This document shows, piece by piece, positions 6,822 through 22,858 of a stretch of DNA of 64,000 nt. The translations under genes were made by a program, and so were the position numbers. The notes below the pieces were generated by a model. It searched no databases. It worked only from the letters and a program-made list of their open reading frames with translations, and was not told the origin of the DNA. Position 1 is the stretch's first letter, and each line of letters starts with the position of its first letter. This DNA comes from Nitrospirota bacterium (lineage in GTDB: Bacteria; Nitrospirota; Thermodesulfovibrionia; Thermodesulfovibrionales; JdFR-88): NCBI GenBank assembly GCA_021789935.1, contig JAJYIR010000002.1, positions 96,934 to 160,933 on the forward strand, read 5' to 3'.

Positions 6822-7352
6822 TTAAAACCTTTTCTCTACCACGTCATCCACAATCCCACCCAGCAGTTTTTCAACCTCCTTTAGCGCCGCCTTGCCGGCA
6901 TTGCTTTTCCAGACAGGACGCTCATAAGAGAGGTAAACCTTTTTTTCATCGCCCGGAAGGGTATAGACAGCTATCCTGTACGGACAGAACGCGATAAAAT
7001 GAGGGTTCCGTTCCATCATGTCTCTTGATACGACCGCGCTGCAAAACTCCAGCACCTTTGCCCTCGCAAATATTTTTTTCGTTCTGCCCAGGGCCATTCC
7101 CGTACGGTCAAGCATCTTCTGAACATGGGAAACCCCTGAGACGACGAGACCACGGTTTGTGAGCGCCATGTTCAGATCATTCCATACGGTATCGAAATCC
7201 CCGTGCACAGAACGTATTACAACGGGGCCGTCATCCGGGGCGACGGCAAATGCCGCCCGCAAGCTGAGACAGGACACAAGACACAGTGCCAGGACCCCGG
7301 CCAGAAGCGCGTGCGCAGGCAGCGCTCCGCCTCTGTCTTTGTGCTGTCTCAT
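6822..7352 (-). CDS. DUF302-domain exported protein
   Basis: This 176-residue product has a basic N-terminus and a hydrophobic signal segment (about residues 13-36, ending AAFAVA). A DUF302 domain follows at about 55-150 (DFDTVWNDLNMALTNRGL, FCPYRIAVY). DUF302 has no established reaction, but it recurs in clusters of sulfur-oxidation and thiosulfate genes. Here it lies between yeeE and tusA, 43 nt downstream of yeeE, so a role in sulfur handling in the periplasm or at the membrane is inferred from position. Confidence 0.8.
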   Translation of the reverse strand: MRQHKDRGGALPAHALLAGVLALCLVSCLSLRAAFAVAPDDGPVVIRSVHGDFDTVWNDLNMALTNRGLVVSGVSHVQKMLDRTGMALGRTKKIFARAKVLEFCSAVVSRDMMERNPHFIAFCPYRIAVYTLPGDEKKVYLSYERPVWKSNAGKAALKEVEKLLGGIVDDVVEKRF

Positions 7353-7395: not shown

Positions 7396-8622
7396 TCATG
7401 CCTCCCGCATTATTCTCCAAGTCATGAACTTGGCCCCGGCTATGGCACCCGCAAAGATGAACGACATGGTCAGAAAACTCCCGGCGGAGAGCGTCGATAT
7501 GCCGCTCAGCCCCTGTCCTATATTGCACCCCATTGCAAGCACGGCCCCGAAACCCATCAACAACCCCCCGATCAGGTTGTACTTGAACTGCTGGAGGGGC
7601 GGCGCTACCCAGTTGAAAGTACCGCTTATGAGGGAGGAGATCAACGCGCCTGCGATTACCCCGAACACCGTGGCCACGGCGAAATTGATGGTCTCCCCTG
7701 TCCAAAGGATTATGTATCTGAAGGCCTGAGCGTCAGCAAGCGCGAATGTCAGGCTCTTGGGCCCCCAGGCCTGCAGGAGCGTGGGGTCATCAGGGCCGGA
7801 AAAAGAGAATGTATCCACGTGGGGCAATGCTGTGAAGGCCAATCCATTTACCCACCAGGCCGCAGCTACCAGCACCCCTATGGCGGCCCCGGCCAGCGGC
7901 CATTTCAGTTTCCGCCACTCGGAGCCCTTCGGGGCCATGAGCATGAATATGAGCAAGGCGGCCTCTATAAGCAGGATTATTGCCCATCCAGGCACCTGGC
8001 TGAAGATATTGGGCAGATATTGGCTCTTTAAATTCAGGGTCAGCTTGTCCAGGTAATCCACCCTGACCTTGGCGCTGATGCCCCACAAGGTGGCCCCGGA
8101 GGAAACAATGAACGCCAGCACGCTCACAAGCCCTCCAAGATTGCCTTCCCCGGCGCGCACGAGTATCCGGCTTGCACAGCCGCCGGCATATACGATCCCG
8201 ACACCGAAAATGAACCCTCCCAATATGTAGCTAACCCATGTAAAAGGCGAACTGATGTATATGCTGCGGGAAATGTCCACAATGCCGGCCCTGTATAGCA
8301 ACTGGGTGGCCGGTATGGCTACGAAAAGCGCCATCGCATACGCTCTGGTCTGGGTCAGATCGCGGGTGGTCACTACATTATGGCAGGCCGCAGCTATACA
8401 GAATTTGGACCTCTGCACTACCGCCCCCAAGAGACCGCCTATCAAAAAACCGGAGACCACAACGGACGTTTGGATAGATTTCTTGATGGCGGTTATCTGC
8501 TCGTCCGACAATGCCGCGGCATTAATGGAAACATACCCCTTGATCTTGAGAATATAGTAGACGATCCAGAGGACCGCGCCCAGCGTTAACGCGGAACCGA
8601 GAATCTTTCTGCCCTTTGACAT
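7396..8622 (-). CDS. YeeE/YedE-family sulfur (thiosulfate) transporter
   Basis: This 408-residue multi-pass inner-membrane protein has two YeeE/YedE repeats. The conserved cysteine motifs of the thiosulfate importer TsuA are visible: QRSKFCIAA (about 70), GGCASRILVRAGEGNLGG (about 148-165) and AMGCNIGQGLSG (about 365-376). These cysteines pass thiosulfate or sulfur through the membrane in characterised members. It is the first gene of yeeE-DUF302-tusA. A GGAGGG lies 6 nt before the ATG, and a sigma-54 promoter with an activator site lies upstream. The substrate is inferred from the family and the sox context. Confidence 0.88.
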   Translation of the reverse strand: MSKGRKILGSALTLGAVLWIVYYILKIKGYVSINAAALSDEQITAIKKSIQTSVVVSGFLIGGLLGAVVQRSKFCIAAACHNVVTTRDLTQTRAYAMALFVAIPATQLLYRAGIVDISRSIYISSPFTWVSYILGGFIFGVGIVYAGGCASRILVRAGEGNLGGLVSVLAFIVSSGATLWGISAKVRVDYLDKLTLNLKSQYLPNIFSQVPGWAIILLIEAALLIFMLMAPKGSEWRKLKWPLAGAAIGVLVAAAWWVNGLAFTALPHVDTFSFSGPDDPTLLQAWGPKSLTFALADAQAFRYIILWTGETINFAVATVFGVIAGALISSLISGTFNWVAPPLQQFKYNLIGGLLMGFGAVLAMGCNIGQGLSGISTLSAGSFLTMSFIFAGAIAGAKFMTWRIMREA

Positions 8623-8694
8623 TTATCCCTCCACCAGTATTTTTCTGAAAAAAAAGTCTGCGGCATTCAATTAGCGCCTCTTCCCTCTGGAATA

Positions 8695-8710
8695 TGCATT
8701 TTCTATGCCA
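8695..8710 (-). promoter_or_regulatory. Sigma-54 (-24/-12) promoter of yeeE-DUF302-tusA
   Basis: On the minus strand TGGCATAGAAAATGCA matches the sigma-54 consensus TGGCACG-N4-TTGCA with the exact 11-bp GG-to-GC offset. The predicted start is near 8684, giving a 62-nt leader that ends in the GGAGGG of yeeE. The adjacent gene encodes a sigma-54 activator. Confidence 0.75.
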
Positions 8711-8748
8711 GAGAATGCCGGTAGATAACAGGCAGAAGCCGCGCGGGG

Positions 8749-8798
8749 ATGTTCAGAAATGCACAACCCGCACGAAGAAGGTGTCCTTTTCTGAACAT
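8749..8798. promoter_or_regulatory. Enhancer: inverted pair of 17-bp activator sites upstream of yeeE
   Basis: ATGTTCAGAAATGCACA (8749-8765) and its inverted partner TGTCCTTTTCTGAACAT (8782-8798) match at 15 of 17 positions when one is reverse-complemented. They are 16 bp apart, centred about 73 and 106 bp upstream of the predicted start. The same arrangement occurs upstream of the sox genes at 16924-16973. This is the expected position for binding of a sigma-54 activator dimer pair. Confidence 0.65.
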
Positions 8799-8834
8799 TT
8801 TTTTGACAGAAGGATTTTTTTTGGTTTGAAGCCC

Positions 8835-10181
8835 TTACAGCAAATTGTATTTAACCATCTTCGTTCTGAGCTGCCTTCTGGTTATCCCCAGACGGCTCGA
8901 GGCCTTTGTCTGGTTCCAGTCCTCAGCCTCAAGTGCGCCCAGGATTGCGGCCTTCTCGATCTCGGGGAGTTTCATTTCCTGCTGGCCAGCGATTTTTCCC
9001 CCTCCCGCCTCCCCGGCCCCGGCATCCAGTATCTTCCTGGGCAGGTCGGCCGGTACGATCGTATCGAACGCCGTCAGCACGACAGCCCTTTCGATGATGT
9101 TTTCAAGCTGCCTGATATTGCCCGGCCAGTCGTACGCTATGAAGGCTTCCATCGCCCTGCGGTCAATGCCTTTTATGAACTTCTGGTTCTGCTGCGCATA
9201 TTTCCTGATGAAGTATTCGGCCAGAAGGGGGATATCCTCCTTGCGCTCCCTCAGGCTTGGCGTGTGGACCGGTATCACGTTAAGGCGGTAAAAGAGGTCT
9301 TCCCTGAACCTCCCGCATCTTAGCTCCTCATCGAGGTCCCTGTTGGTGGAGGCCACTATCCTGCAGTTCGCCTTCACAGGCCCCGTTCCGCCAATCCTGT
9401 AAAATTCCTTCTCCTGTATAAACCTGAGGAGCTTTATCTGCAGGGCCAGGGACATCTCCCCCACTTCGTCCAGGAACAGGGTGCCTTTATTCGCCATCTC
9501 CGCTTTACCCATTTCTCTTGACGAAGCGCCCGTGTAGGAGCCTGCCTCATGGCCGAACAGTTCGTTTTCCATAAGATCCCCTGGAATGGCGCCGCAATTT
9601 ATGGCAACGAACTGGAAGGCCTTTCTCAGGGAGGCATCATGTATGGCGCGCGCAATCAGCTCCTTGCCCGTGCCGGACTCGCCTGTGATCAGGACATTGG
9701 AACGGCTGTCGCACACGATCCGGATGGTGGCCAGTATGTCCAGTATGGCAGGGCTTTTCCCTATGATCCCGTACTGGTCTTTTTCTTCACGCGCTATCTC
9801 CTTCCCAAACTCCGGTTTTTTGTGCAGGAGGCTGTGCTTTACGACCGCAAGCAGCTCATCGGATTCAACCGGCTTGGTAAGGTAATTCACGGCCCCCGCC
9901 CTCATGGCCTCCACCGCGTTTTCAATGCTCCCGTATGCCGTCATGATAATGACCGGCAGATCGGGGGTTTTTTCCTTTATCCAGTTCAAAAGGTCGAGCC
10001 CGGAGCGTCCGGGAAGCCTCATGTCCGTCAGGACAAGATTGAATGCCTGCCCGGAATGAAATTTTGAAGCAGCCTCTTCAAAACTTATTGCGGCTTCAAC
10101 ATCGAAGCCTTCCTGCCTCAAGACCCTGCCCAGGAGCCGCAGGATGTTCCTTTCATCTTCGACTATCAGGATTCTTTCCAT
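8835..10181 (-). CDS. NtrC-family sigma-54-dependent response regulator
   Basis: This 448-residue activator has a receiver domain (1-120) with the phospho-acceptor Asp in LVLTDMRLPG and Lys in YLTKPVE. An AAA+ domain follows (about 140-370) with Walker A GESGTGKE and Walker B GTLFLDEVGEM. A Fis-type helix-turn-helix closes the C-terminus (about 410-448, SSRLGITRRQLRTKM). The sigma-54 contact loop reads GSYTGA in place of the usual GAFTGA. Its ATG follows the kinase stop with no gap. It lies between the two predicted sigma-54 promoters and is the obvious candidate to drive both. Confidence 0.92.
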   Translation of the reverse strand: MERILIVEDERNILRLLGRVLRQEGFDVEAAISFEEAASKFHSGQAFNLVLTDMRLPGRSGLDLLNWIKEKTPDLPVIIMTAYGSIENAVEAMRAGAVNYLTKPVESDELLAVVKHSLLHKKPEFGKEIAREEKDQYGIIGKSPAILDILATIRIVCDSRSNVLITGESGTGKELIARAIHDASLRKAFQFVAINCGAIPGDLMENELFGHEAGSYTGASSREMGKAEMANKGTLFLDEVGEMSLALQIKLLRFIQEKEFYRIGGTGPVKANCRIVASTNRDLDEELRCGRFREDLFYRLNVIPVHTPSLRERKEDIPLLAEYFIRKYAQQNQKFIKGIDRRAMEAFIAYDWPGNIRQLENIIERAVVLTAFDTIVPADLPRKILDAGAGEAGGGKIAGQQEMKLPEIEKAAILGALEAEDWNQTKASSRLGITRRQLRTKMVKYNLL

Positions 10182-11651
10182 TCAGTTTTCCAGGCCTTCC
10201 GTTTTGTAATTGCGCGAATTCATGCCCCCCGGGAGTGGAAATTGAAGCTCGAAATGGGCGCCCTTTCCAGACCCGGCGAGCCTTATTTCCCCGTGGTGGG
10301 TCAGCATTATCTTATAAACGGTGGCAAGCCCCAAACCGCTACCCTCATTTTTCGTGGTAAAGAACGGCTGGAATATGCTGGAGGCGATCTTTTCAGGTAC
10401 ACCCGGCCCGGTGTCCATCACATGGACCCTGAGCCACTCGCCTGAGAGCTCATACTCCACCGTGATAGTGCCGCCGCCCGTCATCGCCTGTATGGCGTTT
10501 ATGAACAGGTTCATGAATACCTGCTTCAAAAGCGCCGGGTCGCACATTATCTGCATTCCGGGGGCCCCTGCGCTTTTTACCTTAACGCCGGCCTCCTCCA
10601 GGTCCGTTTCGAGCAGTTCCGCCACTTTGTCAACTATTTCTTTCAAGTGGCAAAGTCTGGGCATGGGCGACGGTATCCTGGAGAACCTGAGATACTCGTC
10701 AGCCATTATCATCATCTCCAGGGACTCATCTTTTATGATATCTATATATTCCTTTATTTCGGGTTGGCTGTTGGCCTTGCCTATCTCGGAGGCGGCGCCC
10801 CGGATGGCATAGAGGCTGTTGCGCATCTCGTGCGCTATCTGCGCGGACATCTGCCCGACTGCGGCCATACATGTAAGCTTCTCTTTTTCCTCCGACATCT
10901 TCCTGAATTCCTTGAGATATTTTTTCAGGTTCCCGATCATTTGCTGGAATGCCTGCCGCAGTTGCACCGACTCGTCCCTTGCCGAACGGTCATACAGATT
11001 TGCGTCGCCAAAGGTTATCTCCTTCTCGAACGCCTCCACCTCCTTTACAAGCCTTGCCATGGGTTTGGCAAGGATGGAGGAAACGATAAAAGAGCCCCCT
11101 ATGCCGGCAGCAAATATCAAAAAAGAAAGATAGACAAGCTCAACCCTGGTTTTCCTGAATTCCTTGCCCGGGCGGTTTCTTTTAGCAAAATCGATCCGGA
11201 TGGCCCCCAGCACATCGCCACCGGCGCTGACAGGCAAAAAAATCCGTGAACCATCATATCCGTCATCCTGCGGGGGCAGCCCGGTGGCCTGAAACCGCTT
11301 GTATGCGTCCGGGGCAGTCTGACCTATCTCCCGCAAGTTGCCGGACAGCACTATTATTCCCCTCCTGTCCACCGCCGTTACGTTCTTTACCCCGGAGGTC
11401 AGCTTCAACTGCCTCACCTGTTCCAGCAGGGGGCCGTAATCCCTGGATATCATCGCATCAGAGGCGGAGCCCGCAAGTTTTTCGGCGATGCTGTCGTGGA
11501 ACTGCCTCAACTGCAAGGCCATGTTCTTACGCGCGGTGGAAAGCACTACCAGGCTTACGGAAAGGTATATCAGCGATATCATCAGCATCATATAAAGGAT
11601 GCCTTTCGTCCTGATGCTGGTCCGCTCGTGCAGTTGGCGCAATATCTTCAT
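10182..11651 (-). CDS. Membrane sensor histidine kinase (HAMP-HisKA-HATPase)
   Basis: This 489-residue protein has a first membrane segment at about 16-38, a periplasmic domain of roughly 130 residues, a second membrane segment at about 173-195, HAMP (about 195-250), HisKA with the phospho-His in AQIAHEMRNSLYAI (about 276) and a C-terminal HATPase (NLFINAIQAM, DTGPGVPE, GSGLGLATVYKI). Its ATG overlaps the stop of the upstream PhnD-like gene (ATGA), so the binding protein and kinase are translationally coupled. It most likely senses the PhnD-like protein's ligand and phosphorylates the adjacent regulator. Confidence 0.92.
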   Translation of the reverse strand: MKILRQLHERTSIRTKGILYMMLMISLIYLSVSLVVLSTARKNMALQLRQFHDSIAEKLAGSASDAMISRDYGPLLEQVRQLKLTSGVKNVTAVDRRGIIVLSGNLREIGQTAPDAYKRFQATGLPPQDDGYDGSRIFLPVSAGGDVLGAIRIDFAKRNRPGKEFRKTRVELVYLSFLIFAAGIGGSFIVSSILAKPMARLVKEVEAFEKEITFGDANLYDRSARDESVQLRQAFQQMIGNLKKYLKEFRKMSEEKEKLTCMAAVGQMSAQIAHEMRNSLYAIRGAASEIGKANSQPEIKEYIDIIKDESLEMMIMADEYLRFSRIPSPMPRLCHLKEIVDKVAELLETDLEEAGVKVKSAGAPGMQIMCDPALLKQVFMNLFINAIQAMTGGGTITVEYELSGEWLRVHVMDTGPGVPEKIASSIFQPFFTTKNEGSGLGLATVYKIMLTHHGEIRLAGSGKGAHFELQFPLPGGMNSRNYKTEGLEN

Positions 11652-12517
11652 GGATTAGACATGCCTTTTTCCTCTCTGTCTTTTTTAAGGAGGGCCCTTA
11701 CAAGGTCATAATCTTTGTCGCGGACCCTTGACAGCCCGTCCGCGCCCGGCTCTATGCCGCCCAGCACATCCTCCGGGTTTTTGAGGCTGTTTACAAGCAG
11801 CATGGCTTTCTCGACCTCACGCAGGAGCCGCCCGTCAAGACCTCCCCTTGCGGCAAAAAGATATTGGGAAATAGGTAGTGAGACACCTATCACCCTTAGT
11901 CCTTTGTCCAAATAGGGTTTGGCCGTCTCCTCGGAGACTCCCGTTGCGTCGAACAGCCTTGCCATGACCGCAAGGACCGCGCTCTCATCCGACCCCAGCC
12001 TGACGACATCCATGAAGTCGCCCTTGCTAATGCCGGCTTTCCGGAGGATGAAATCCGGGAGCAGCCCCGAACCGGGACAATAATACCTCCCGTATACAAA
12101 GGTTCTGCCAAAAAGATCGGAGACCTTTTTAATGCCGGAATCATTCCGCACGAGAATAACGCTCCTGTAAACGGAGCTGCCATTGACGCGCAGTTTCGCC
12201 AGCGGCACAATCGGCATAAGCTTTGAAGCCTGGCAATAAAGAGACGGGCAGAGAAAAGCCAGGTCGGCTTCGCCCTTTTCCAGGCTGGTTATGATCTCGC
12301 TCCGTTTTTTTGCGACTCTGAGTTCCACGGGAATTCCCAGGCGGGTTTCCAGGTACCGCTTGAAGGGCAGGAACCTCCCGTACATTACCGAAGGAGAGTC
12401 CAGGGGCATCAGCAGCAGGGTCAATTTTCGCTTCGCAAATGCCGGAGGGGCAGCCACCAGGACGAACATCGCGGACAGGAGAAAGAACCTTTTTAGAAGG
12501 GAGAAATATCTATCCAT
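11648..12517 (-). CDS. PhnD-like periplasmic binding protein, sensory partner of the adjacent kinase
   Basis: This 289-residue protein has a signal peptide (about 1-28, ending PPAFA) and a PhnD/type-2 periplasmic-binding fold: PLDSPSVMYGRFLPFKRYLE, GEADLAFLCPSLY, VSDLFGRTFVYG and a YYCPGSGLLPDFIL segment. Family members bind phosphonate, phosphite or phosphate, and many kinase-linked PhnD-like proteins are sensors. No ABC permease or ATPase gene is nearby, which supports a sensory role. The ligand is unknown; an oxyanion such as thiosulfate or tetrathionate is a reasonable guess from context. There is no Shine-Dalgarno before the ATG, and a promoter abuts it. Confidence 0.82.
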   Translation of the reverse strand: MDRYFSLLKRFFLLSAMFVLVAAPPAFAKRKLTLLLMPLDSPSVMYGRFLPFKRYLETRLGIPVELRVAKKRSEIITSLEKGEADLAFLCPSLYCQASKLMPIVPLAKLRVNGSSVYRSVILVRNDSGIKKVSDLFGRTFVYGRYYCPGSGLLPDFILRKAGISKGDFMDVVRLGSDESAVLAVMARLFDATGVSEETAKPYLDKGLRVIGVSLPISQYLFAARGGLDGRLLREVEKAMLLVNSLKNPEDVLGGIEPGADGLSRVRDKDYDLVRALLKKDREEKGMSNP

Positions 12518-12527
12518 TTTTTCGAAT

Positions 12528-12557
12528 ATTATAAAGGGGGTATCCCGGGATTTTCAA
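12528..12557 (-). promoter_or_regulatory. Sigma-70 promoter of the PhnD-kinase-regulator operon
   Basis: On the minus strand TTGAAA (12557-12552), an 18-bp spacer and a perfect TATAAT (12533-12528) are present. The predicted start near 12521 is about 4 nt from the ATG at 12517, implying an almost leaderless mRNA. The promoter overlaps the soxB 3' hairpin. Confidence 0.6.
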
Positions 12558-12568
12558 ACCCGGGATAC
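12540..12568 (-). terminator. Perfect hairpin downstream of soxB
   Basis: GTATCCCGGG (12540-12549) and CCCGGGATAC (12559-12568) form a perfect 10-bp stem with a 9-nt loop, 20 nt past the soxB stop. The 3' side on the minus strand is CCCCCTTTATAAT, a weak U-tract. It may terminate the sox message or stabilise its end. The promoter for the regulator operon is built into it. Confidence 0.55.
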
Positions 12569-12588
12569 GTTGTCAACCAAAGACTGCC

Positions 12589-14259
12589 TCACGCCACGAG
12601 CGTCTGATTTTCATTATGTATGCTTATTGTTTTCTTCCGCTTGATATAGTCTGTAACTATATCATAGACGGGCGGCCCGGACTGGCCTGCCATTGAGGCC
12701 CAGCCGGCCATCGTGTATTCCTTGCCGGGCTCCACGAGCTTGCCTCGCACCTTCAGGTCCTGGATCCTCCGGCCCACAGGCCTTTCGGCGTACAGGCTGT
12801 ATTCCAGCCCCTTTGACCTTACCATGTCGCCGCCCTGCTGCATGTAAGGGTCCGGGTTGAACAGGTTATCCGCTACGTCCTCAAGTACGTTCTTCAGCGT
12901 GCTGCCCTTCATGGTGGATTTGTATGTGTTCGGATATGTAATGGCCGTTTGCGAATAGACGTCCTCTGTGGTTATGGGACCGGCAGGCACCGTCCCGCCC
13001 CATCTGAAACCGGGGGAAAGCGCAAACTCCACGTCGTAGTGCTCCGTCAGGGCATCACATATCAGATTGTCGAAGGTCCCGTCCATGTTGCCTCGCCTGT
13101 AGAGCAATGTCTCCGTATGCCCCAGCACCTCCCCAAGCTTTTCTTTATAAGGGGCCCGAAGGTCCTCGACCAATTTTTCCATTTCCGGGTCCGGCTCGAT
13201 CATCCCCGATATGACCGGTATGAGCCTGAAAGAATAGCTTTGTATGGCCCTGTTCTTCACCTGGAGATCCAGCCTCGAAACGAATTTGCCGTAACAGCCG
13301 GAATTTATGACAAGCGTCTTGCCCACTGTTACAGGCCTTGGCACGCCGTCATGCGTATGCCCGCCCATGATCACGTCTATCCCTTTGACCCGGCTGGCCA
13401 TTTTCTTGTCCACATCCATGCCATTATGGGAAATTACGACTATGAGGTCCGCCTTCTTCTCTCTAAGCTCATCCACAATACTCTGCATATGCCCATCTTT
13501 TATGCCGAAAGACCAGTCCGGGATAAACCTCCTGGGGTTGGCTATGGGAGTGTACGGGAACGCCTGCCCAATGACGGCAACAGCCATCCCGCCCACCTGT
13601 TTAATGACATATGGTTTGAATACCGGGTCTCCCCAGGTGGCATCGTTCACGTTCTGGGCGACGAAGGGGAAATTCATTTTTTTTATCAGCTCCTTAAGGC
13701 GGTCCTGGCCATAGGTAAACTCCCAATGCCCGGTCATGACCTCGCAGCCAAGCTTGTTCATGGCTGTGACCATGTCTTCGCCCTTCGTCCAGAGACTTGT
13801 GGCAGACCCCTGGACGGTATCGCCTCCGTCAATGTGGAGTACCTTCCCGGGCCTTTCCGCCCTGATGCGCTTTATCAAGGTGGCCATATATGCGAAACCG
13901 CCCACTTTTCCGTATTCCCGGGCGAGCCTGGCATAATCGTCACAGGTATACGCGTAAGCCTCCGGGGTGTCCGGCCTGTACCCGTAATATTTGAGAAAGG
14001 CCTTGCCCGTGATATGTGGAGGCTGTCCCTTATCTTCACCCACTCCGATATTCGTATCGGGTTCCCTGTAGAAAACCGGGACAAGCTGGGCGTGCGTATC
14101 CGTTGTATGCACCAGCGTCAGGTTCCCCTCACCTGAAAAGCTGAAAAGATTCCTGGGATTCAGGGACTTCGCGAGCGCCTCAGGTGTAAGCGAGGCGAAA
14201 GCGGCGCCCCCGGCCGCCAGCGACAGCATTTGAATGAATTTCCGCCTTGTTATGCTCAT
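12589..14259 (-). CDS. soxB: Thiosulfohydrolase SoxB
   Basis: SoxB hydrolyses sulfate from SoxY-bound thiosulfate adducts in the periplasm using two Mn ions. The 556-residue length fits. A Tat signal is present (RRKFIQMLSLAAGGAAFA). Metallophosphatase motifs are visible: HTTDTHAQL (about 50), DGGDTVQGS (about 147), TGHWEFTYG (about 178) and MGGHTHDGVPRP (about 285). The C-terminal 5'-nucleotidase domain spans about 360-556. A clear AAGGAGG lies 5 nt before the ATG. It is the last gene of the sox transcript. Confidence 0.96.
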   Translation of the reverse strand: MSITRRKFIQMLSLAAGGAAFASLTPEALAKSLNPRNLFSFSGEGNLTLVHTTDTHAQLVPVFYREPDTNIGVGEDKGQPPHITGKAFLKYYGYRPDTPEAYAYTCDDYARLAREYGKVGGFAYMATLIKRIRAERPGKVLHIDGGDTVQGSATSLWTKGEDMVTAMNKLGCEVMTGHWEFTYGQDRLKELIKKMNFPFVAQNVNDATWGDPVFKPYVIKQVGGMAVAVIGQAFPYTPIANPRRFIPDWSFGIKDGHMQSIVDELREKKADLIVVISHNGMDVDKKMASRVKGIDVIMGGHTHDGVPRPVTVGKTLVINSGCYGKFVSRLDLQVKNRAIQSYSFRLIPVISGMIEPDPEMEKLVEDLRAPYKEKLGEVLGHTETLLYRRGNMDGTFDNLICDALTEHYDVEFALSPGFRWGGTVPAGPITTEDVYSQTAITYPNTYKSTMKGSTLKNVLEDVADNLFNPDPYMQQGGDMVRSKGLEYSLYAERPVGRRIQDLKVRGKLVEPGKEYTMAGWASMAGQSGPPVYDIVTDYIKRKKTISIHNENQTLVA

Positions 14260-14287
14260 TAGTCCTCCTTATGCATGCTTTGCCCTC

Positions 14288-15112
14288 TTACATCCTGAAC
14301 CCGGGGACTTCCACCGGCAAACCGTTGGCCTGATAAGTAAGGTACAGTTCCAGGTCGCGATATGTCTCGCATTGAAAAGGCAGCGGCTTGGCCCTTACTT
14401 TCTTGTTGCACCCTTTGAACCGTTTTTGAAGTGATCCGGTTTTGCCCCATTTCAACCTGTAGCCCGGCCAATGGTCTGCGTGGTGCCTGTTGTTTGACAA
14501 GAGGTTCGCCCGTATCATGTGTCCGGCATACTTCACATGGCAGATGGCGCAGCTCATGTTCAATTGTCCCTGCCGCTTGTAATAATAGGCCTCTCCCGCT
14601 TTGTAGAAGGGCCTGGCCGGACCGTCTATGCTCACTTTTATCGGCACCCCGTTTGAGAGCGATTTCACATAAAGCTCCAGCGCCAGCTGGTCGTGCGATT
14701 CATATTTCAGTTCCGGGGCGCCCATATTGTCCTTCCGGCACCTGTTTATCTGGAGCGCCACCGTGTTTATGCCCTTTATCGAAGGATCATACTTTGGATA
14801 AGTGGCAGCGACACCCTTCAGTTTTTCGCCGTTTTCGCCGTGGCAACTGGCGCAGGACTTGCCCGCACTGCCGTCAACCTTTTTAAAAAGGTCTTTGCCG
14901 TCATCCAGCACGAAGTCTGCGGGGTTGCCCTGCTGGGCCATCTGCTCGGTGAATTTGCCGTATACCGCGTTGTATCTTTTTTCGTACTCCCTGGTAGATA
15001 TGTTCTGCTTGTATTCCTTTATACCGGAACCAGCCCCTCCGGCAAATGCGCCGCCGGCGGCAACCGCTCCCGCCGCAAATACCAATATGAAAAAATAAAA
15101 ACACCTTCGCAT
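14288..15112 (-). CDS. soxA: Diheme c-type cytochrome SoxA
   Basis: SoxA with SoxX forms the heme enzyme that links thiosulfate to the SoxY cysteine. A signal peptide is followed by two CxxCH sites, CASCH (about 110) and CAICH (about 195), so this is the diheme form. The catalytic Cys ligand is most likely in FKGCNKK, where the family has its cysteine-persulfide heme ligand. The ATG at 15112 is preferred over that at 15118, because the AAGGAGG sits 7 nt before the former and abuts the latter. It lies between soxZ and soxB. Confidence 0.94.
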   Translation of the reverse strand: MRRCFYFFILVFAAGAVAAGGAFAGGAGSGIKEYKQNISTREYEKRYNAVYGKFTEQMAQQGNPADFVLDDGKDLFKKVDGSAGKSCASCHGENGEKLKGVAATYPKYDPSIKGINTVALQINRCRKDNMGAPELKYESHDQLALELYVKSLSNGVPIKVSIDGPARPFYKAGEAYYYKRQGQLNMSCAICHVKYAGHMIRANLLSNNRHHADHWPGYRLKWGKTGSLQKRFKGCNKKVRAKPLPFQCETYRDLELYLTYQANGLPVEVPGFRM

Positions 15113-15139
15113 CCCCATGCCTCCTTGTTTCCCCGCGCC

Positions 15140-15466
15140 TCAGCGGGGGGTTATCTGGACTGATTGCTGGTAAACCCCTCCTTTGTTGTCCTTATAAACG
15201 ATCTTGAGGGGGGCCGTCTTGTCTGCCTTCAGGTAAAAGGATATAAACGGGTTGGCGCTGATCCCATAGCTCCAGTCGCAGTGCGTGACCCTTTCATTCC
15301 CGTAAAATATATCAACGTCGTTTATGTAATACGCAGGTATGATCTGTCCGGCCTTGTTCTTAATCAGACCGGTATCCATCGGATGGCTTACAAGCGCCAT
15401 CACGGGTATCACCTCACCCTTCCTTATGGTGCCGGGCACCCTTATCTTTATCCTCCCTACTACCAT
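15140..15466 (-). CDS. soxZ: Sulfur-carrier complex subunit SoxZ
   Basis: This 108-residue immunoglobulin-like protein with no signal peptide is as expected, since SoxZ is exported bound to SoxY. Family blocks include EVIPVMALVSHPMDTG (about 20-35), PAYYINDVDIFYGNERV and NPFISFYLKADKTAPLKI. It pairs with SoxY to present the swinging Cys arm to SoxAX and SoxB. The ATG has a good AAAAGGAGG 9 nt upstream. It lies 65 nt downstream of soxY. Confidence 0.95.
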   Translation of the reverse strand: MVVGRIKIRVPGTIRKGEVIPVMALVSHPMDTGLIKNKAGQIIPAYYINDVDIFYGNERVTHCDWSYGISANPFISFYLKADKTAPLKIVYKDNKGGVYQQSVQITPR

Positions 15467-15531
15467 GTCGAAGACCTCCTTTTATTCCTTTTTCCTGCCA
15501 GATTTTTTCCGTGCCCTTTTTTGCATCGCGC

Positions 15532-16026
15532 CTATCCGCCGCATCCCCCGATAGTCACCTTGACCGGCTTTATCGCGCCGTAGAGCTGTCCCCTGCTGGT
15601 CTCCAGGATCGCGCGCACATTAGAGGTCTTCCTCATCTTTATCCTCATGGCAAACATCGCCTTCCCGTTTGCGGGCGTAAGCTCGATGCCCGCTATATAG
15701 GGCTCGGGGTTGCCGTCCGCGTACACATTTATCTTTTTTACGTAATCATTATTGTTCATCGGCAAGTCGGAAGTGATGGTCAGGGGGACAACGGCCCCGT
15801 TTTCCGCGATTATCGGCGCGTTAATGGTGACGTGAGACATGCTCACTTTTCTGTTGCCGAACTGCCTTTTCAGCACCTCGTTTATATTTTCTCCCTTAAC
15901 GGCGGCCAATGCAGGCCTCACGAGCGGGGGGAAAGCGCCCGCCGCCAAAAACATCGCGCCGGCAACTCCCGCTGATTTGATAAAAGTCCTCCTGGTGAGC
16001 GCCGGTCCCTTATCTTCCTGCTCCAT
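15532..16026 (-). CDS. soxY: Sulfur-carrier protein SoxY
   Basis: This 164-residue protein has a Tat signal (TRRTFIKSAGVAG) and the hallmark C-terminus TIGGCGG, whose Cys is the covalent attachment point for thiosulfate and its intermediates. The middle is the SoxY immunoglobulin-like fold (APIIAENGAVVPLTITSDLP). The start is fixed by AAAGGAGG 8 nt before the ATG; both lie inside the 3' end of soxX, giving a 17-nt overlap. The intact GGCGG arm shows that the Sox carrier cycle is functional in principle. Confidence 0.96.
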   Translation of the reverse strand: MEQEDKGPALTRRTFIKSAGVAGAMFLAAGAFPPLVRPALAAVKGENINEVLKRQFGNRKVSMSHVTINAPIIAENGAVVPLTITSDLPMNNNDYVKKINVYADGNPEPYIAGIELTPANGKAMFAMRIKMRKTSNVRAILETSRGQLYGAIKPVKVTIGGCGG

Positions 16027-16420
16027 CGTGTTCGCCTCCTTTCAAGATTTTTTTATCATTAAGGCTCAAGAGATAATCGACAACGTCATCAATCTGCTGG
16101 CTGGTCAGTATCTTGTTGGCCCCGAAAGGCGGCATTATGGTGTCCGGCATGAATTTCCTTTCATCCCACACCCTCTCCCGCAACATTTCCCTGTCCTTTT
16201 CGGAGTAGTTCTTCATGGCCTCGATAAGATTCGGCCCGACATCCCCCGGGAATTCCATCCCGGGCACCACATGGCATGCCGCGCAGTTGCCGAGTTTTTT
16301 CGTGTCGACGACTTTTTTGCCGGCTTCCGCGCTGCCTCCGGCCAGCACGGCGGTTGGCAGGGTCAAAAAAGTCAAAAACGCAAACGTCAGACCCAGAGCC
16401 GCAATTTTACTGGTTCTCAT
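16010..16420 (-). CDS. soxX: Monoheme c-type cytochrome SoxX
   Basis: This 136-residue protein has a signal peptide (about 1-28) and one heme site, GNCAACH (about 44-50). The SoxX-like blocks EFPGDVGPNL and PDTIMPPFGANKIL follow; the Met in the latter is the likely sixth heme ligand. With SoxA it forms SoxAX and receives electrons from thiosulfate coupling to SoxY. A GGAGGAGAGGGG precedes the ATG. It is followed with overlap by soxY. Confidence 0.92.
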   Translation of the reverse strand: MRTSKIAALGLTFAFLTFLTLPTAVLAGGSAEAGKKVVDTKKLGNCAACHVVPGMEFPGDVGPNLIEAMKNYSEKDREMLRERVWDERKFMPDTIMPPFGANKILTSQQIDDVVDYLLSLNDKKILKGGEHDGAGR

Positions 16421-16456
16421 TCCCCTCTCCTCCTTTCTTTTTAAAAAAACTTGCCT

Positions 16457-16867
16457 CTATTTTGCGCAAAAAAGGCTTTTGATTCCCACACGATGGCAAA
16501 CAAGGTCCTTGAAATCCTCTTTTGTCACCACACCCGGTATTCTAAGCAGTTCCTTGTTTCCGGGGCCTATGAAAATAAGAGTGGGGACCCCAAAGACCCC
16601 ATATCTTCTCTTGAGCCCGGTCCCGGCCAGTCCTTCCCCGTCCAGTTTCTCCGTCCCGTAAACATTTATTTTTTCCACACTGATATTATTCTGAAAGATT
16701 TTTTTTATCGATGGGTCATAGATCACATCATCCATCATTTTGCACCACTTGCAATTATCCCTGTAGAAAAAAAGCAGCCGGAGGTTTTTCCCGGACGCAC
16801 CGTATGCGGACGCCGCAGCCGAGGTCATCACGAGCAGGCAAAAAATCAAAATGGCGGATTTCTTCAT
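16457..16867 (-). CDS. soxW: SoxW-like periplasmic thioredoxin
   Basis: From the ATG at 16867 this is a 136-residue exported thioredoxin-fold protein: signal peptide (about 1-24), active site NCKWCKMM (CxxC at about 38-41) and the cis-Pro loop GVPTLIF. SoxW-type thioredoxins reduce the SoxY/SoxS side in several sulfur oxidisers. It is the first gene of the sox transcript. The longer frame back to 17014 is rejected because it hides the signal peptide and has no family similarity. An ATG two codons earlier (16873) would lie upstream of the predicted sigma-54 start. No Shine-Dalgarno is evident. Confidence 0.8.
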   Translation of the reverse strand: MKKSAILIFCLLVMTSAAASAYGASGKNLRLLFFYRDNCKWCKMMDDVIYDPSIKKIFQNNISVEKINVYGTEKLDGEGLAGTGLKRRYGVFGVPTLIFIGPGNKELLRIPGVVTKEDFKDLVCHRVGIKSLFCAK

Positions 16868-16881
16868 TTCCATAAAAGAAA

Positions 16882-16897
16882 TGCAAAATACATGCCC
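16882..16897 (-). promoter_or_regulatory. Sigma-54 (-24/-12) promoter of the sox operon
   Basis: On the minus strand GGGCATGTATTTTGCA matches TGGCACG-N4-TTGCA except at positions 1 and 6, with the exact 11-bp GG-to-GC offset. The predicted start near 16871 is about 4 nt from the soxW-like ATG at 16867, so the first gene would be nearly leaderless. That is odd for sigma-54 and is the main caveat. Confidence 0.65.
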
Positions 16898-16923
16898 ATA
16901 CAACCTCGCAAAAAAGCACACCG

Positions 16924-16973
16924 TTGTCCCTTTTTGCACAATTTGGCCTCTTTTTATGTGCAATTCAGAACAT
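16924..16973. promoter_or_regulatory. Enhancer: inverted pair of 17-bp activator sites upstream of sox
   Basis: TGTGCAATTCAGAACAT (16957-16973) matches the reverse complement of the yeeE-proximal site at 15 of 17 positions. A weaker partner, TTGTCCCTTTTTGCACA (16924-16940, about 11 of 17), lies in inverted orientation 16 bp away, exactly the spacing seen upstream of yeeE. The sites centre about 61 and 94 bp upstream of the predicted start. Confidence 0.6.
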
Positions 16974-22099: not shown

Positions 22100-22858
22100 A
22101 AAAGGGGACGGTTCTATTTTTCACTTTTCCTTGGCCGCCCTCTCGCCCCAACCACCTCTTTTACCTTATAGTCCGTCCGCACTTTCTTCGTGAATTCCTC
22201 GCCCCCATACACAAGTCTTCCGTCCATAGCGCCTTTCATTGCGCCTTTTTCCAGCATCCCTTTCACGAATTGCCGGTATAATTTTCTTCGCTCAGATGCC
22301 GTAGCGGAAAACTCATAAAAGACCGGATCCTCATCCGTTACGGTGTCCCTTTTCCCGTAAGCATAATAATTATAGCTGCTCCAGGCATATTCCTTCGGGT
22401 CTTCAACAATTCCTGCCCTTACGGGATTAAGCTCAACGTAACTCGCACAGGCCAGCAGATAGTCGTCCTTGGATATCAGGATACTCTTGAACCTGTCTTG
22501 CCAGAAATGGCCGGTATGCCTTTGTTGCCTTTTAAAATAGAGGGCATACGAGAGGTTAATCCCTTTCATAATGTCTGCGAGCCTGCCACCTTTTTCCGAG
22601 GGCTCGATCACGAGGTGGACATGGTTGCCCATCAGCACGTAATGATACAGCAGAAATCCATATTTTTCTTTATAGCGGGAAAGAATGCCAAGGTAATAGC
22701 CGTAATCGTCCGGATTCTTGAATACTGCCTGACGGTTGTTGCCGCGGGTCAGCACATGGTAGATATGGCCTTCCGGCGCTGTCCTCGAAATCCTCGGCAT
22801 GCGGAGAATTTAACAAAACGGGGCAGTCTTGTCAAGAAAAATAGAACCGTCCCCTTTT
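22100..22858 (-). mobile_element. RAYT (REP-associated tyrosine transposase) element with perfect 22-bp terminal inverted repeats
   Basis: AAAAGGGGACGGTTCTATTT.. (22100-22121) is exactly inverted at 22837-22858, bracketing a single Y1 transposase gene. The left repeat overlaps the last codons and stop of the transposase. GGGGACGGTTC-type repeats bracketing RAYT genes fit a REP-domesticated IS200/IS605-like unit. No obvious target duplication is seen, as expected for HUH transposition. Confidence 0.85.
22114..22800 (-). CDS. REP-associated tyrosine transposase (Y1_Tnp, IS200-like)
   Basis: This 228-residue single-strand transposase has the RAYT signature start (PRISRTAPEGHIYHVLTRG), the HUH motif in MGNHVHLVIEP (about 57-67) and the tyrosine region in LLACASYVELNPVRAGIV (about 113-130), then a basic tail ending GRPRKSEK. 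It appears intact. Enzymes of this group act on REP-like hairpins. It is the only complete mobile-element gene in the window. Confidence 0.9.
   Translation of the reverse strand: MPRISRTAPEGHIYHVLTRGNNRQAVFKNPDDYGYYLGILSRYKEKYGFLLYHYVLMGNHVHLVIEPSEKGGRLADIMKGINLSYALYFKRQQRHTGHFWQDRFKSILISKDDYLLACASYVELNPVRAGIVEDPKEYAWSSYNYYAYGKRDTVTDEDPVFYEFSATASERRKLYRQFVKGMLEKGAMKGAMDGRLVYGGEEFTKKVRTDYKVKEVVGARGRPRKSEK

What the first reader, a model, noticed from the sequence alone, without database searches (positions are those of the whole stretch)
8695..16973. Two sigma-54 promoters with identical paired enhancers frame the sulfur locus
Sigma-54 elements with exact 11-bp GG-to-GC spacing lie upstream of yeeE (8695-8710) and the soxW-like gene (16882-16897). 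Each is preceded by a 50-bp array: a 17-bp site, a 16-bp gap, and an inverted 17-bp site. Three of the four sites match ATGTTCnGAAnTGCACA (15 of 17 between copies); the fourth is weaker (about 11 of 17). The sites centre at about -73/-106 and -61/-94. The activator gene between them belongs to the NtrC family. Shared spacing and orientation at two promoters is unlikely by chance.
Basis: partly seen in the sequence, partly recalled or inferred. Interest (0 to 1): 0.85.

Follow-up and report, generated by a model that had tools for sequence, protein, structure and literature searches.

The report
Three-part sulfur switch with twin enhancers
In a Nitrospirota bacterium two promoters, one before the sox sulfur-oxidation genes and one before a thiosulfate-transporter-like gene, carry the same pair of 16-base palindromes 32 bases apart, a layout kept in related genomes, and a response regulator encoded between them likely binds these pairs and would switch both promoters on when a periplasmic binding protein is predicted to sense thiosulfate.

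Summary
Both -24/-12 elements are there. All four "17-bp sites" are 16-bp imperfect palindromes, TGTNC-N6-GNACA, in pairs 32 bp apart; the fourth site is not weaker when read as a palindrome. These are the only two exact pairs in the 2.47-Mb genome. Across 176 genomes of the order, 63 of 64 listed pairs (parS-like repeats set aside) lie 30-33 bp apart although 20-50 was searched. In 16 soxB genomes, 28 of 29 soxW/yeeE promoter windows hold an exact site. Response regulators (RRs) near the pairs form one clade, and 47 of 48 genomes with pairs have one. Likely mechanism: periplasmic binding protein, histidine kinase, NtrC-type RR, sigma54 polymerase, built like arsenite AioXSR and reading a site of the A. 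caldus TspR type. The sox branch is sister to an order-wide branch lying by YeeE, TusA, rhodanese, TauE and PhsA-like genes with mostly TGTCC half-sites; ten of its pairs hold the published TspR sequence exactly. One recognition-helix residue (Arg in sox, Lys in the other) follows the half-site difference. Binding, thiosulfate sensing and activation are inferred. New variant of a known kind.

The parts
8694..8709 (-). -24/-12 element of the yeeE promoter, TGGCATAGAAAATGCA; predicted transcript start about 8683
   Evidence: start position computed from the -12 C, not measured
8750..8765 (.). proximal enhancer dyad of yeeE, TGTTCAGAAATGCACA (+ strand), centre -73
8782..8797 (.). distal enhancer dyad of yeeE, TGTCCTTTTCTGAACA (+ strand), centre -105, 32 bp from its partner
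16882..16897 (-). -24/-12 element of the sox promoter, GGGCATGTATTTTGCA; predicted transcript start about 16871
16925..16940 (.). proximal enhancer dyad of sox, TGTCCCTTTTTGCACA (+ strand), centre -61
16957..16972 (.). distal enhancer dyad of sox, TGTGCAATTCAGAACA (+ strand), centre -93, 32 bp from its partner
16457..16867 (-). soxW-like thioredoxin-fold gene; ATG at about +5 of the predicted start, so the message is likely leaderless
   Evidence: Thioredoxin_2
16010..16420 (-). soxX
   Evidence: TIGR04485 over its cut-off
15532..16026 (-). soxY
   Evidence: TIGR04488 over its cut-off
15140..15466 (-). soxZ
   Evidence: TIGR04490 over its cut-off
14288..15118 (-). soxA
   Evidence: TIGR04484 over its cut-off
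12589..14259 (-). soxB
   Evidence: TIGR04486, 829.5 bits against cut-off 550
12540..12568 (-). hairpin between soxB and the binding-protein gene, terminator-like; a strong hairpin is there in relatives too
   Evidence: -18.9 kcal/mol, z -3.15; strong hairpin in 7 of 8 genomes folded
12528..12557 (-). candidate sigma70 promoter TTGAAA-N18-TATAAT just before the binding-protein ATG; would give the regulators a basal promoter of their own
   Evidence: 11 of 12 matches; but the region as a whole has 10 such sites against 8.6 in shuffles
11648..12517 (-). periplasmic PhnD/PtxB-type binding protein, predicted sensor component (X); Cys90 and Cys147 invariant in 15 orthologues
   Evidence: PF12974 3e-46; alignment; PDB profile hits; model pLDDT 84.6 and fold match
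10182..11651 (-). membrane histidine kinase (S); overlaps the binding-protein gene by 4 bp
   Evidence: HisKA, HATPase_c; weak sCache_3_2; membrane helices by eye
8835..10181 (-). NtrC-type response regulator (R): REC, sigma54 AAA+ domain, Fis-type HTH; recognition helix GITRRQLRTKM
7396..8622 (-). YeeE/TsuA/SoxT-like sulfur transporter
   Evidence: PF04143 1.4e-63; TsuA models below their cut-offs
6822..7352 (-). DUF302 protein, second gene after the yeeE promoter
   Evidence: PF03625; next to yeeE in relatives

Best explanation
The two promoters carry matching pairs of TGTNC-N6-GNACA palindromes 32 bp apart, and the response regulator encoded between them likely binds these pairs and would drive RNA polymerase-sigma54 at both, when a periplasmic PhnD-type binding protein is predicted to signal thiosulfate (or a related sulfur oxyanion) to the adjacent histidine kinase. 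SHOWN by sequence: the elements and their spacing; the order soxW-XYZAB / binding protein-kinase-regulator / yeeE-DUF302; conservation of sites and layout; co-occurrence of this regulator clade with paired sites; presence of sigma54 in the genome. INFERRED: one dimer per palindrome, with the 32-33-bp distance (three helical turns) placing two dimers on one face of the DNA so that the phosphorylated AAA+ domains can form the active ring; contact with sigma54 by looping; thiosulfate as the ligand, with the conserved Cys in its pocket; two outputs from one signal, enzymes and sulfur import; a small basal supply of the three regulators from a sigma70 promoter behind soxB, with read-through from sox past the hairpin as positive feedback.
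For: Own genome: only two exact pairs, both here, and one RR of this clade: the 18 next best NtrC-type matches all fall outside it, support 100/99. Order: 63 of 64 listed non-parS pairs at pitch 30-33 in a range of 20-50; control 1 of 176 genomes. Promoter windows of 16 soxB genomes: 46 sites in 11.6 kb against 5 in 325 kb elsewhere in the same loci; 28 of 29 windows hit (windows were set by hand after searches had shown the sites). Exact pairs at 13 of 16 yeeE-side and 3 of 13 soxW-side promoters; 7 more soxW promoters have a partner with one mismatch at pitch 32. Regulator clade: 47 of 48 pair genomes have it, against 19 of 128 genomes without a pair (p 5e-26). Binding protein: encoded beside the kinase or one gene away in the sox loci, where the gene between is in at least three loci a diverged second copy; signal peptide by eye; no ABC permease or ATPase among the genes annotated here; invariant Cys90 in the column of the ArrX cysteine. 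Precedent: AioXSR with RpoN (PMC6011840, PMC7533571) and the PhnD-like thiosulfate kinase ThsS (PMC5408782), passages seen.
Against: No binding, transcript or ligand data. 19 genomes have a regulator of this clade but no exact pair, so the exact pattern is incomplete or sites diverge. In G027, G038 and G083 the sox/yeeE promoters lack an exact pair (G027 has one-mismatch partners, G038 single sites, G083 one-mismatch sites at yeeE). In G028 soxW and G038 yeeE no -24/-12 was matched, and in G070 yeeE the pair lies farther from the matched -24/-12 than the limit used. The binding protein is closer by sequence to phosphite/phosphonate proteins than to ArrX or AioX, and the pocket loop is among the least certain parts of the model (residues 146-150 under pLDDT 50). 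The window kinase matches sCache only weakly (E 0.0011).
Confidence: 0.8

Rival explanations
1. It is a plain two-component TspS/TspR-type system: the kinase senses the signal by its own periplasmic (Cache-like) domain, and the binding protein only feeds sulfur compounds to a transporter or buffers them.
For: A. caldus TspS/TspR is described, in the passages seen, without a binding protein, and TspS carries sCache_3_2 (PMC6335251, PMC12194929). 6 of 13 sox kinases match sCache_3_2 at E up to 1 (best 8.4e-8), and so does the one sister-branch kinase of type F12 scanned. In several relatives one gene lies between binding protein and kinase.
Against: The binding-protein gene overlaps the kinase gene by 4 bp here and is kept beside it or one gene away in the sox loci. 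No ABC permease or ATPase was found among the genes annotated here. In the sister branch a two-domain PhnD-like protein (F13) shares the stretch with its kinase (F12) in 5 loci.
Confidence: 0.3
2. The paired dyads belong to another NtrC-family activator (NifA- or NtrC-like, since TGT-N10-ACA is the NifA site as I recall it), not to the regulator encoded here.
For: The core is a special case of TGT-N10-ACA (recalled). The genome has at least 18 further NtrC-type regulators.
Against: Pairs follow this one regulator clade across 176 genomes (47 of 48) and lie near its genes at sox and other sulfur loci; the recognition helix and half-site vary together. The RR is far below the NtrC and NifA cut-offs.
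Confidence: 0.05
3. The sites are conserved for another reason, for example a repressor, and the sigma54 boxes are incidental.
For: A SoxR repressor controls sox in Hyphomicrobium (PMC11582611, passages). The sites could serve more than one protein.
Against: Sites lie mostly at -61 to -115 with fixed phase upstream of -24/-12 elements, the usual activator position, and not over the promoter. No repressor gene was found among the genes annotated in the cluster.
Confidence: 0.04

Closest known systems
TspS/TspR of Acidithiobacillus caldus (sigma54-dependent regulator of sox)
   Same: Sigma54-type RR and kinase encoded at a sox cluster; its published UAS TGTCCCAAATGGGACA fits TGTNC-N6-GNACA exactly (PMC6335251); part of the sox kinases share its sensor domain type.
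   Different: The sox sites here have mostly TGTTCA/TGTACA/TGTGCA-like half-sites and rarely TGTCCC (2 of 68 half-sites); they are paired 32-33 bp apart; a binding protein is added; a second promoter drives yeeE. Orthology of the RRs was not tested. The passages seen mention one UAS; Li et al. 2017 itself was not read.
AioXSR (arsenite) and ArrX/ArxX systems
   Same: PhnD-type periplasmic protein + membrane kinase + RpoN-dependent RR in front of an oxyanion-oxidising enzyme operon; the ligand cysteine column is shared with ArrX (PMC5908839, PMC6011840, PMC7533571, passages).
   Different: Sequence of the binding protein is closer to PtxB (4e-36) than to ArrX (3e-13) or AioX (2e-7); a second invariant Cys147; target is sox, not arsenite oxidase.
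ThsS/ThsR and TtrS/TtrR
   Same: A PhnD-like domain as sensor of thiosulfate or, likely, tetrathionate (PMC5408782, passages).
   Different: There the domain is part of the kinase; here it is a separate protein, and the RR is of the sigma54-activating type.
SoxT1A/SoxT1B with SoxR of Hyphomicrobium
   Same: YeeE-like transporters tied to sox genes and their regulation (PMC11582611, passages).
   Different: That control is by a repressor; here it is by predicted sigma54-dependent activation.

Membership tests
Sigma54-dependent NtrC-type response regulators | REC + sigma54 AAA+ + Fis-type HTH domains | tested here: met
   PF00072, PF00158, PF02954 all over cut-off
Sigma54-dependent NtrC-type response regulators | GAFTGA loop | tested here: inconclusive
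   GSYTGA in the window; GAYTGA or GSYTGA in 15 of 16 sox RRs
Sigma54-dependent NtrC-type response regulators | Sigma54 gene in the genome and -24/-12 elements | tested here: met
   PF04552 207.6 bits
NtrC or NifA proper | curated equivalog cut-off | tested here: not met
   ntrC 428.8 against 558.6 bits, nifA 344.8 against 528.85 bits
TspS/TspR | UAS core TGTNC-N6-GNACA | tested here: met
   4 of 4 sites; published UAS fits
TspS/TspR | half-site TGTCCC | tested here: not met
   2 of 68 half-sites in sox pairs; 77 of 176 in the other pairs
TspS/TspR | kinase with sCache_3_2 | tested here: inconclusive
   window kinase E 0.0011, below cut-off; 6 of 13 sox kinases match at E up to 1, best 8.4e-8
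TspS/TspR | RR orthologous to A. caldus TspR | not tested
AioXSR-type three-component systems | PhnD-fold binding protein, kinase and sigma54-type RR encoded together | tested here: met
AioXSR-type three-component systems | pocket cysteine (AioX Cys106 / ArrX Cys) | tested here: met
   Cys90 invariant in 15 of 15 and aligned to the ArrX Cys; the AioX alignment itself was not printed
AioXSR-type three-component systems | binding protein belongs to the AioX/ArrX subfamily by sequence | tested here: not met
   best profile matches are PtxB/phosphonate proteins; ArrX and AioX rank lower
AioXSR-type three-component systems | binding protein signals its ligand to the kinase | not testable with these tools
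   -

The most novel reading that the evidence does not exclude
Nitrospirota carry an order-wide family of three-part sulfur sensors (binding protein, kinase, sigma54 activator) that read twin palindromes three DNA turns apart. Paralogous circuits are kept apart by one recognition-helix residue matched to the half-site: Lys reads TGTCC (thiosulfate-reductase-like, TauE, YeeE, TusA and rhodanese genes), Arg reads TGT(T/A/G)C (sox and its importer). The site type is shared with A. caldus TspR in another phylum.
Probability: 0.5. Interest if true: 0.68.

Novelty: new variant of a known kind. Interest (0 to 1): 0.58.

Why it matters
It gives a Nitrospirota lineage known here from metagenome assemblies a specific, testable switch for sox and its importer, and links it to an order-wide set of sulfur genes, among them a thiosulfate-reductase-like operon in a genome whose contig length equals that of the cultured Thermodesulfovibrio yellowstonii type strain. 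It joins two known designs, AioXSR-type periplasmic sensing and a TspR-type DNA site. It also proposes a one-residue specificity switch between paralogous enhancer-binding proteins that can be tested by a single swap, and it supplies candidate thiosulfate sensor parts for biosensors.

Tried and rejected
Rejected: chance (controls). Pairs of TGTTCCACGTGGAACA (11 of 75 listed) were set aside as parS-like: they have scattered spacing, and the name parS is recalled. One search's list was cut before its last row(s): 75 places were counted, one of them a duplicate copy of another (G077).

Not useful: SoxB and RR searches in plasmids gave only relatives below 60% identity and no Acidithiobacillus among the rows listed (one search lists 20 of 272 records). 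The kinase search in genome contigs gave three true relatives, L032-L034, and one distant kinase.

Counts that need care. "16 of 16 soxB genomes have a pair" counts the whole genome; in G027, G038 and G083 the exact pair is at another locus, so the report does not use that figure. The 29 promoter windows (430 bp each) were placed by hand, in which the sites were already visible; the G046 yeeE-side window was placed at a -24/-12 next to the RR because no yeeE was found in that stretch. In one search the genomes said to have the clade are 55 with a match of about 449 bits or more to the L085 RR (several are partial matches) plus the soxB genomes, 66 in all; this list was copied by hand. G086 is the one pair genome outside; its locus L098 holds a cut-off RR fragment (48%). 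A first half-site table used hand-picked subsets and is replaced, which uses the pairs listed except the 11 parS-like ones, the one at pitch 21 and the duplicate copy (62 pairs: 17 sox, 1 G021 contig 72, 44 other). For G001 and G005 the script picked the wrong -24/-12; one search gives the right one. In one search the first G001 stretch missed the hairpin; one search refolded it. Two RRs (L090, L128) were left out of the tree as fragments. In the tree the Arg-type RR of G021 lies on the Lys side but at an unresolved fork, so one or two changes fit; L166 and L193 were labelled Lys there although their helices were not read. Not tried: the search for homologous proteins, which shows no organism and so was not expected to identify TspR; the second structure job; a model of the kinase sensor domain.

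Papers: searches, 85 of the open library. No listed title or abstract start described a binding protein-kinase-sigma54 system for sox or such a system in Nitrospirota; subscription papers, Li et al. 2017 among them, are not held.
Full report
WHAT IS THERE. Reading the minus strand, the promoter in front of the soxW-like gene has GGGCATGTATTTTGCA (16897-16882), and the promoter in front of yeeE has TGGCATAGAAAATGCA (8709-8694). Both are good sigma54 -24/-12 elements with GG-N10-GC. Upstream of each lie two 16-bp imperfect palindromes with the core TGTNC-N6-GNACA, 32 bp apart from start to start: 16957-16972 and 16925-16940 for sox, 8782-8797 and 8750-8765 for yeeE. Dyad centres are -93/-61 and -105/-73 from the predicted starts. 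The genome encodes sigma54.

GENES. The cluster is soxW-soxX-soxY-soxZ-soxA-soxB, then a periplasmic binding protein, a histidine kinase and an NtrC-type response regulator, then yeeE and a DUF302 gene, all on the minus strand. SoxB, A, Z, Y and X pass NCBI's curated cut-offs. YeeE has the Sulf_transp domain (1.4e-63) but is below the TsuA cut-offs. The closest named relatives found are Nitrospirota MAGs.

IS IT CHANCE? In the whole genome (2.47 Mb in 60 contigs) the exact pair at this spacing occurs twice, at these two promoters; with up to 3 mismatches there are 4 places against 6 for the reversed control. Single cores are no commoner than the reversed control (17 against 28), so the signal is in the pairing and position. 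In 176 genomes of the order, the exact 32-bp pair is in 20 genomes and the reversed pattern in none. With the gap free from 4 to 34 bases (pitch 20-50), 60 of 176 genomes match and the control matches in 1. After setting aside 11 parS-like pairs among the 75 listed, 63 of the other 64 lie at pitch 30-33 (3, 24, 29 and 7) and one at 21. In a phylum-wide sample, 47 of 395 genomes have a pair at pitch 30-33 and the control has none; one of the hits outside the order is parS-like.

CONSERVATION AT SOX. SoxB orthologues (E at most 1e-100) occur in 16 of 176 genomes. I looked at 29 promoter windows in them, 13 before soxW and 16 before yeeE or its position; three soxW windows were missing because the stretch ends before them. 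The windows were placed by hand after searches had shown the sites. 28 of 29 hold an exact core. Those windows (11.6 kb) hold 46 cores; the rest of the same loci (325 kb) holds 5; the reversed control has 0 and 7. Exact pairs stand at 13 of 16 yeeE-side promoters and 3 of 13 soxW promoters, and 7 more soxW promoters have a partner with one mismatch at pitch 32. In most promoters the proximal centre is -61 to -66 at soxW and -72 to -75 at yeeE; exceptions are G002 yeeE (-83), G038 soxW (-74) and G081 soxW (-117). Against the reading: G027 has exact sites only with one-mismatch partners, G038 only single sites, G083 only one-mismatch sites at yeeE; in G028 soxW and G038 yeeE no -24/-12 was matched, and in G070 yeeE the pair is farther from the matched element than the limit used. 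In G027 the gene order is rearranged so that yeeE and sox diverge, and each keeps a site and a -24/-12.

WHICH REGULATOR? The RRs of the 16 sox loci and 9 RRs that share a stretch with other pairs form one clade with support 100/99, apart from the 18 next best NtrC-type matches in the window's own genome; the sox and other RRs are sister groups. Across the order, 47 of the 48 genomes with a 30-33 pair have an RR of this clade, against 19 of the 128 without (p 5e-26; threshold and exception under Tried and rejected). The 19 without an exact pair show that the exact pattern is not complete.

THE SISTER BRANCH. Near the non-sox pairs lie Sulf_transp (YeeE/YedE-like) genes, TusA-like and DsrE-like proteins, rhodanese, two TauE/SafE-type genes, and a molybdopterin enzyme with an iron-sulfur subunit, the former closest to thiosulfate reductase PhsA (527 bits, under the cut-off of 694). 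Representatives, not every gene, were scanned, and other genes (universal stress protein, glycosyltransferase, radical SAM, aconitase) lie there too. G133 carries the PhsA type; its contig of 2,003,803 bp has the length given for Thermodesulfovibrio yellowstonii DSM 11347 (PMC4319510, abstract start). Its RR of the clade lies 18 kb from the pair.

SPECIFICITY. All 16 sox RRs have the recognition helix TRRQL. Of 30 best matches to the sister RR, 28 could be read: 27 have S/T-R-K-Q and one has TRRQL. In 17 sox pairs, position 4 of the half-site is C in 9 of 68 half-sites and A in 13; in 44 other pairs it is C in 123 of 176 and A in 1, with T in 31 and G in 21. The one sister RR with Arg (G021, contig 72) lies beside a pair whose four half-sites read T, A, A, A at position 4. 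So Arg goes with TGT(T/A/G)C and Lys mostly with TGTCC. That RR falls on the sister side of the tree at an unresolved fork, so this is one or two evolutionary changes, not many.

KNOWN OR NEW? A. caldus TspS/TspR, a sigma54-dependent pair, is reported to control a sox cluster through TGTCCCAAATGGGACA (PMC6335251, passages). That sequence fits the core found here, and ten non-sox pairs hold it exactly on one strand or the other. So the kind is known. What differs: the binding protein, the paired layout, the second promoter for the importer, the changed half-site of the sox branch, and the spread over sulfur genes in Nitrospirota. I found no paper on these in the searches listed, which cover only an open library.

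TRANSCRIPTION UNITS. Between soxB and the binding-protein gene there is a stable hairpin (strong in 7 of 8 genomes folded; G028 weak). Shortly before the ATG there is a TATAAT box in G000, G001, G002 and G046, a looser A/T-rich box in G005, G027 and G028, and none that I see in G004. This suggests that the regulators have a basal promoter of their own and that sox read-through is limited. In 12 of 12 soxW promoters with a matched -24/-12, a start codon lies at +2 to +14 of the predicted start, so soxW is likely translated from an almost leaderless message.

VERDICT. The elements are real and conserved. That the local RR drives both promoters is very likely; the thiosulfate-sensing part is plausible. 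The finding is a new variant of a known kind.

Noticed in passing
window 16865-16883 and 11 related soxW promoters: In 12 of 12 soxW promoters with a matched -24/-12 a start codon lies at +2 to +14 of the predicted start, so a conserved almost leaderless message at a sigma54 promoter is likely.
   Followed up: partly
window 12528-12568 and relatives: Hairpin after soxB followed by a TATAAT box right before the binding-protein ATG (box clear in 4 of 8 genomes); the candidate -35 TTGAAA sits in the hairpin loop.
   Followed up: partly
RR at window 8835-10181 and orthologues: The GAFTGA loop reads GSYTGA here and GAYTGA or GSYTGA in 15 of 16 sox RRs, against F at that place in 17 of 18 own-genome paralogues; several yeeE promoters have ATGC instead of TTGC at -12. 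Whether the two are linked is open.
   Followed up: no
G133:C1:1105306-1105352 (L120): Paired sites and a -24/-12 upstream of Usp, two TauE-type genes and a PhsA-like enzyme in a genome whose contig has the length of Thermodesulfovibrio yellowstonii DSM 11347.
   Followed up: partly
L081, L082, L093, L132, L136, L137: A conserved glycosyltransferase 2 and radical-SAM pair (F11, F8), in some loci near a B12-binding radical-SAM gene and an amine-oxidase-like gene (F14, F15), lies beside paired sites or beside yeeE; role in sulfur unknown.
   Followed up: no
several genomes, for example G161-G167: Pairs of TGTTCCACGTGGAACA with scattered spacing, parS-like (name recalled).
   Followed up: no
window 6822-7352: A DUF302 protein lies directly downstream of yeeE in most of the sox loci read; function unknown.
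   Followed up: no
window 22114-22800: IS200-like transposase gene among riboflavin and other housekeeping genes.
   Followed up: no
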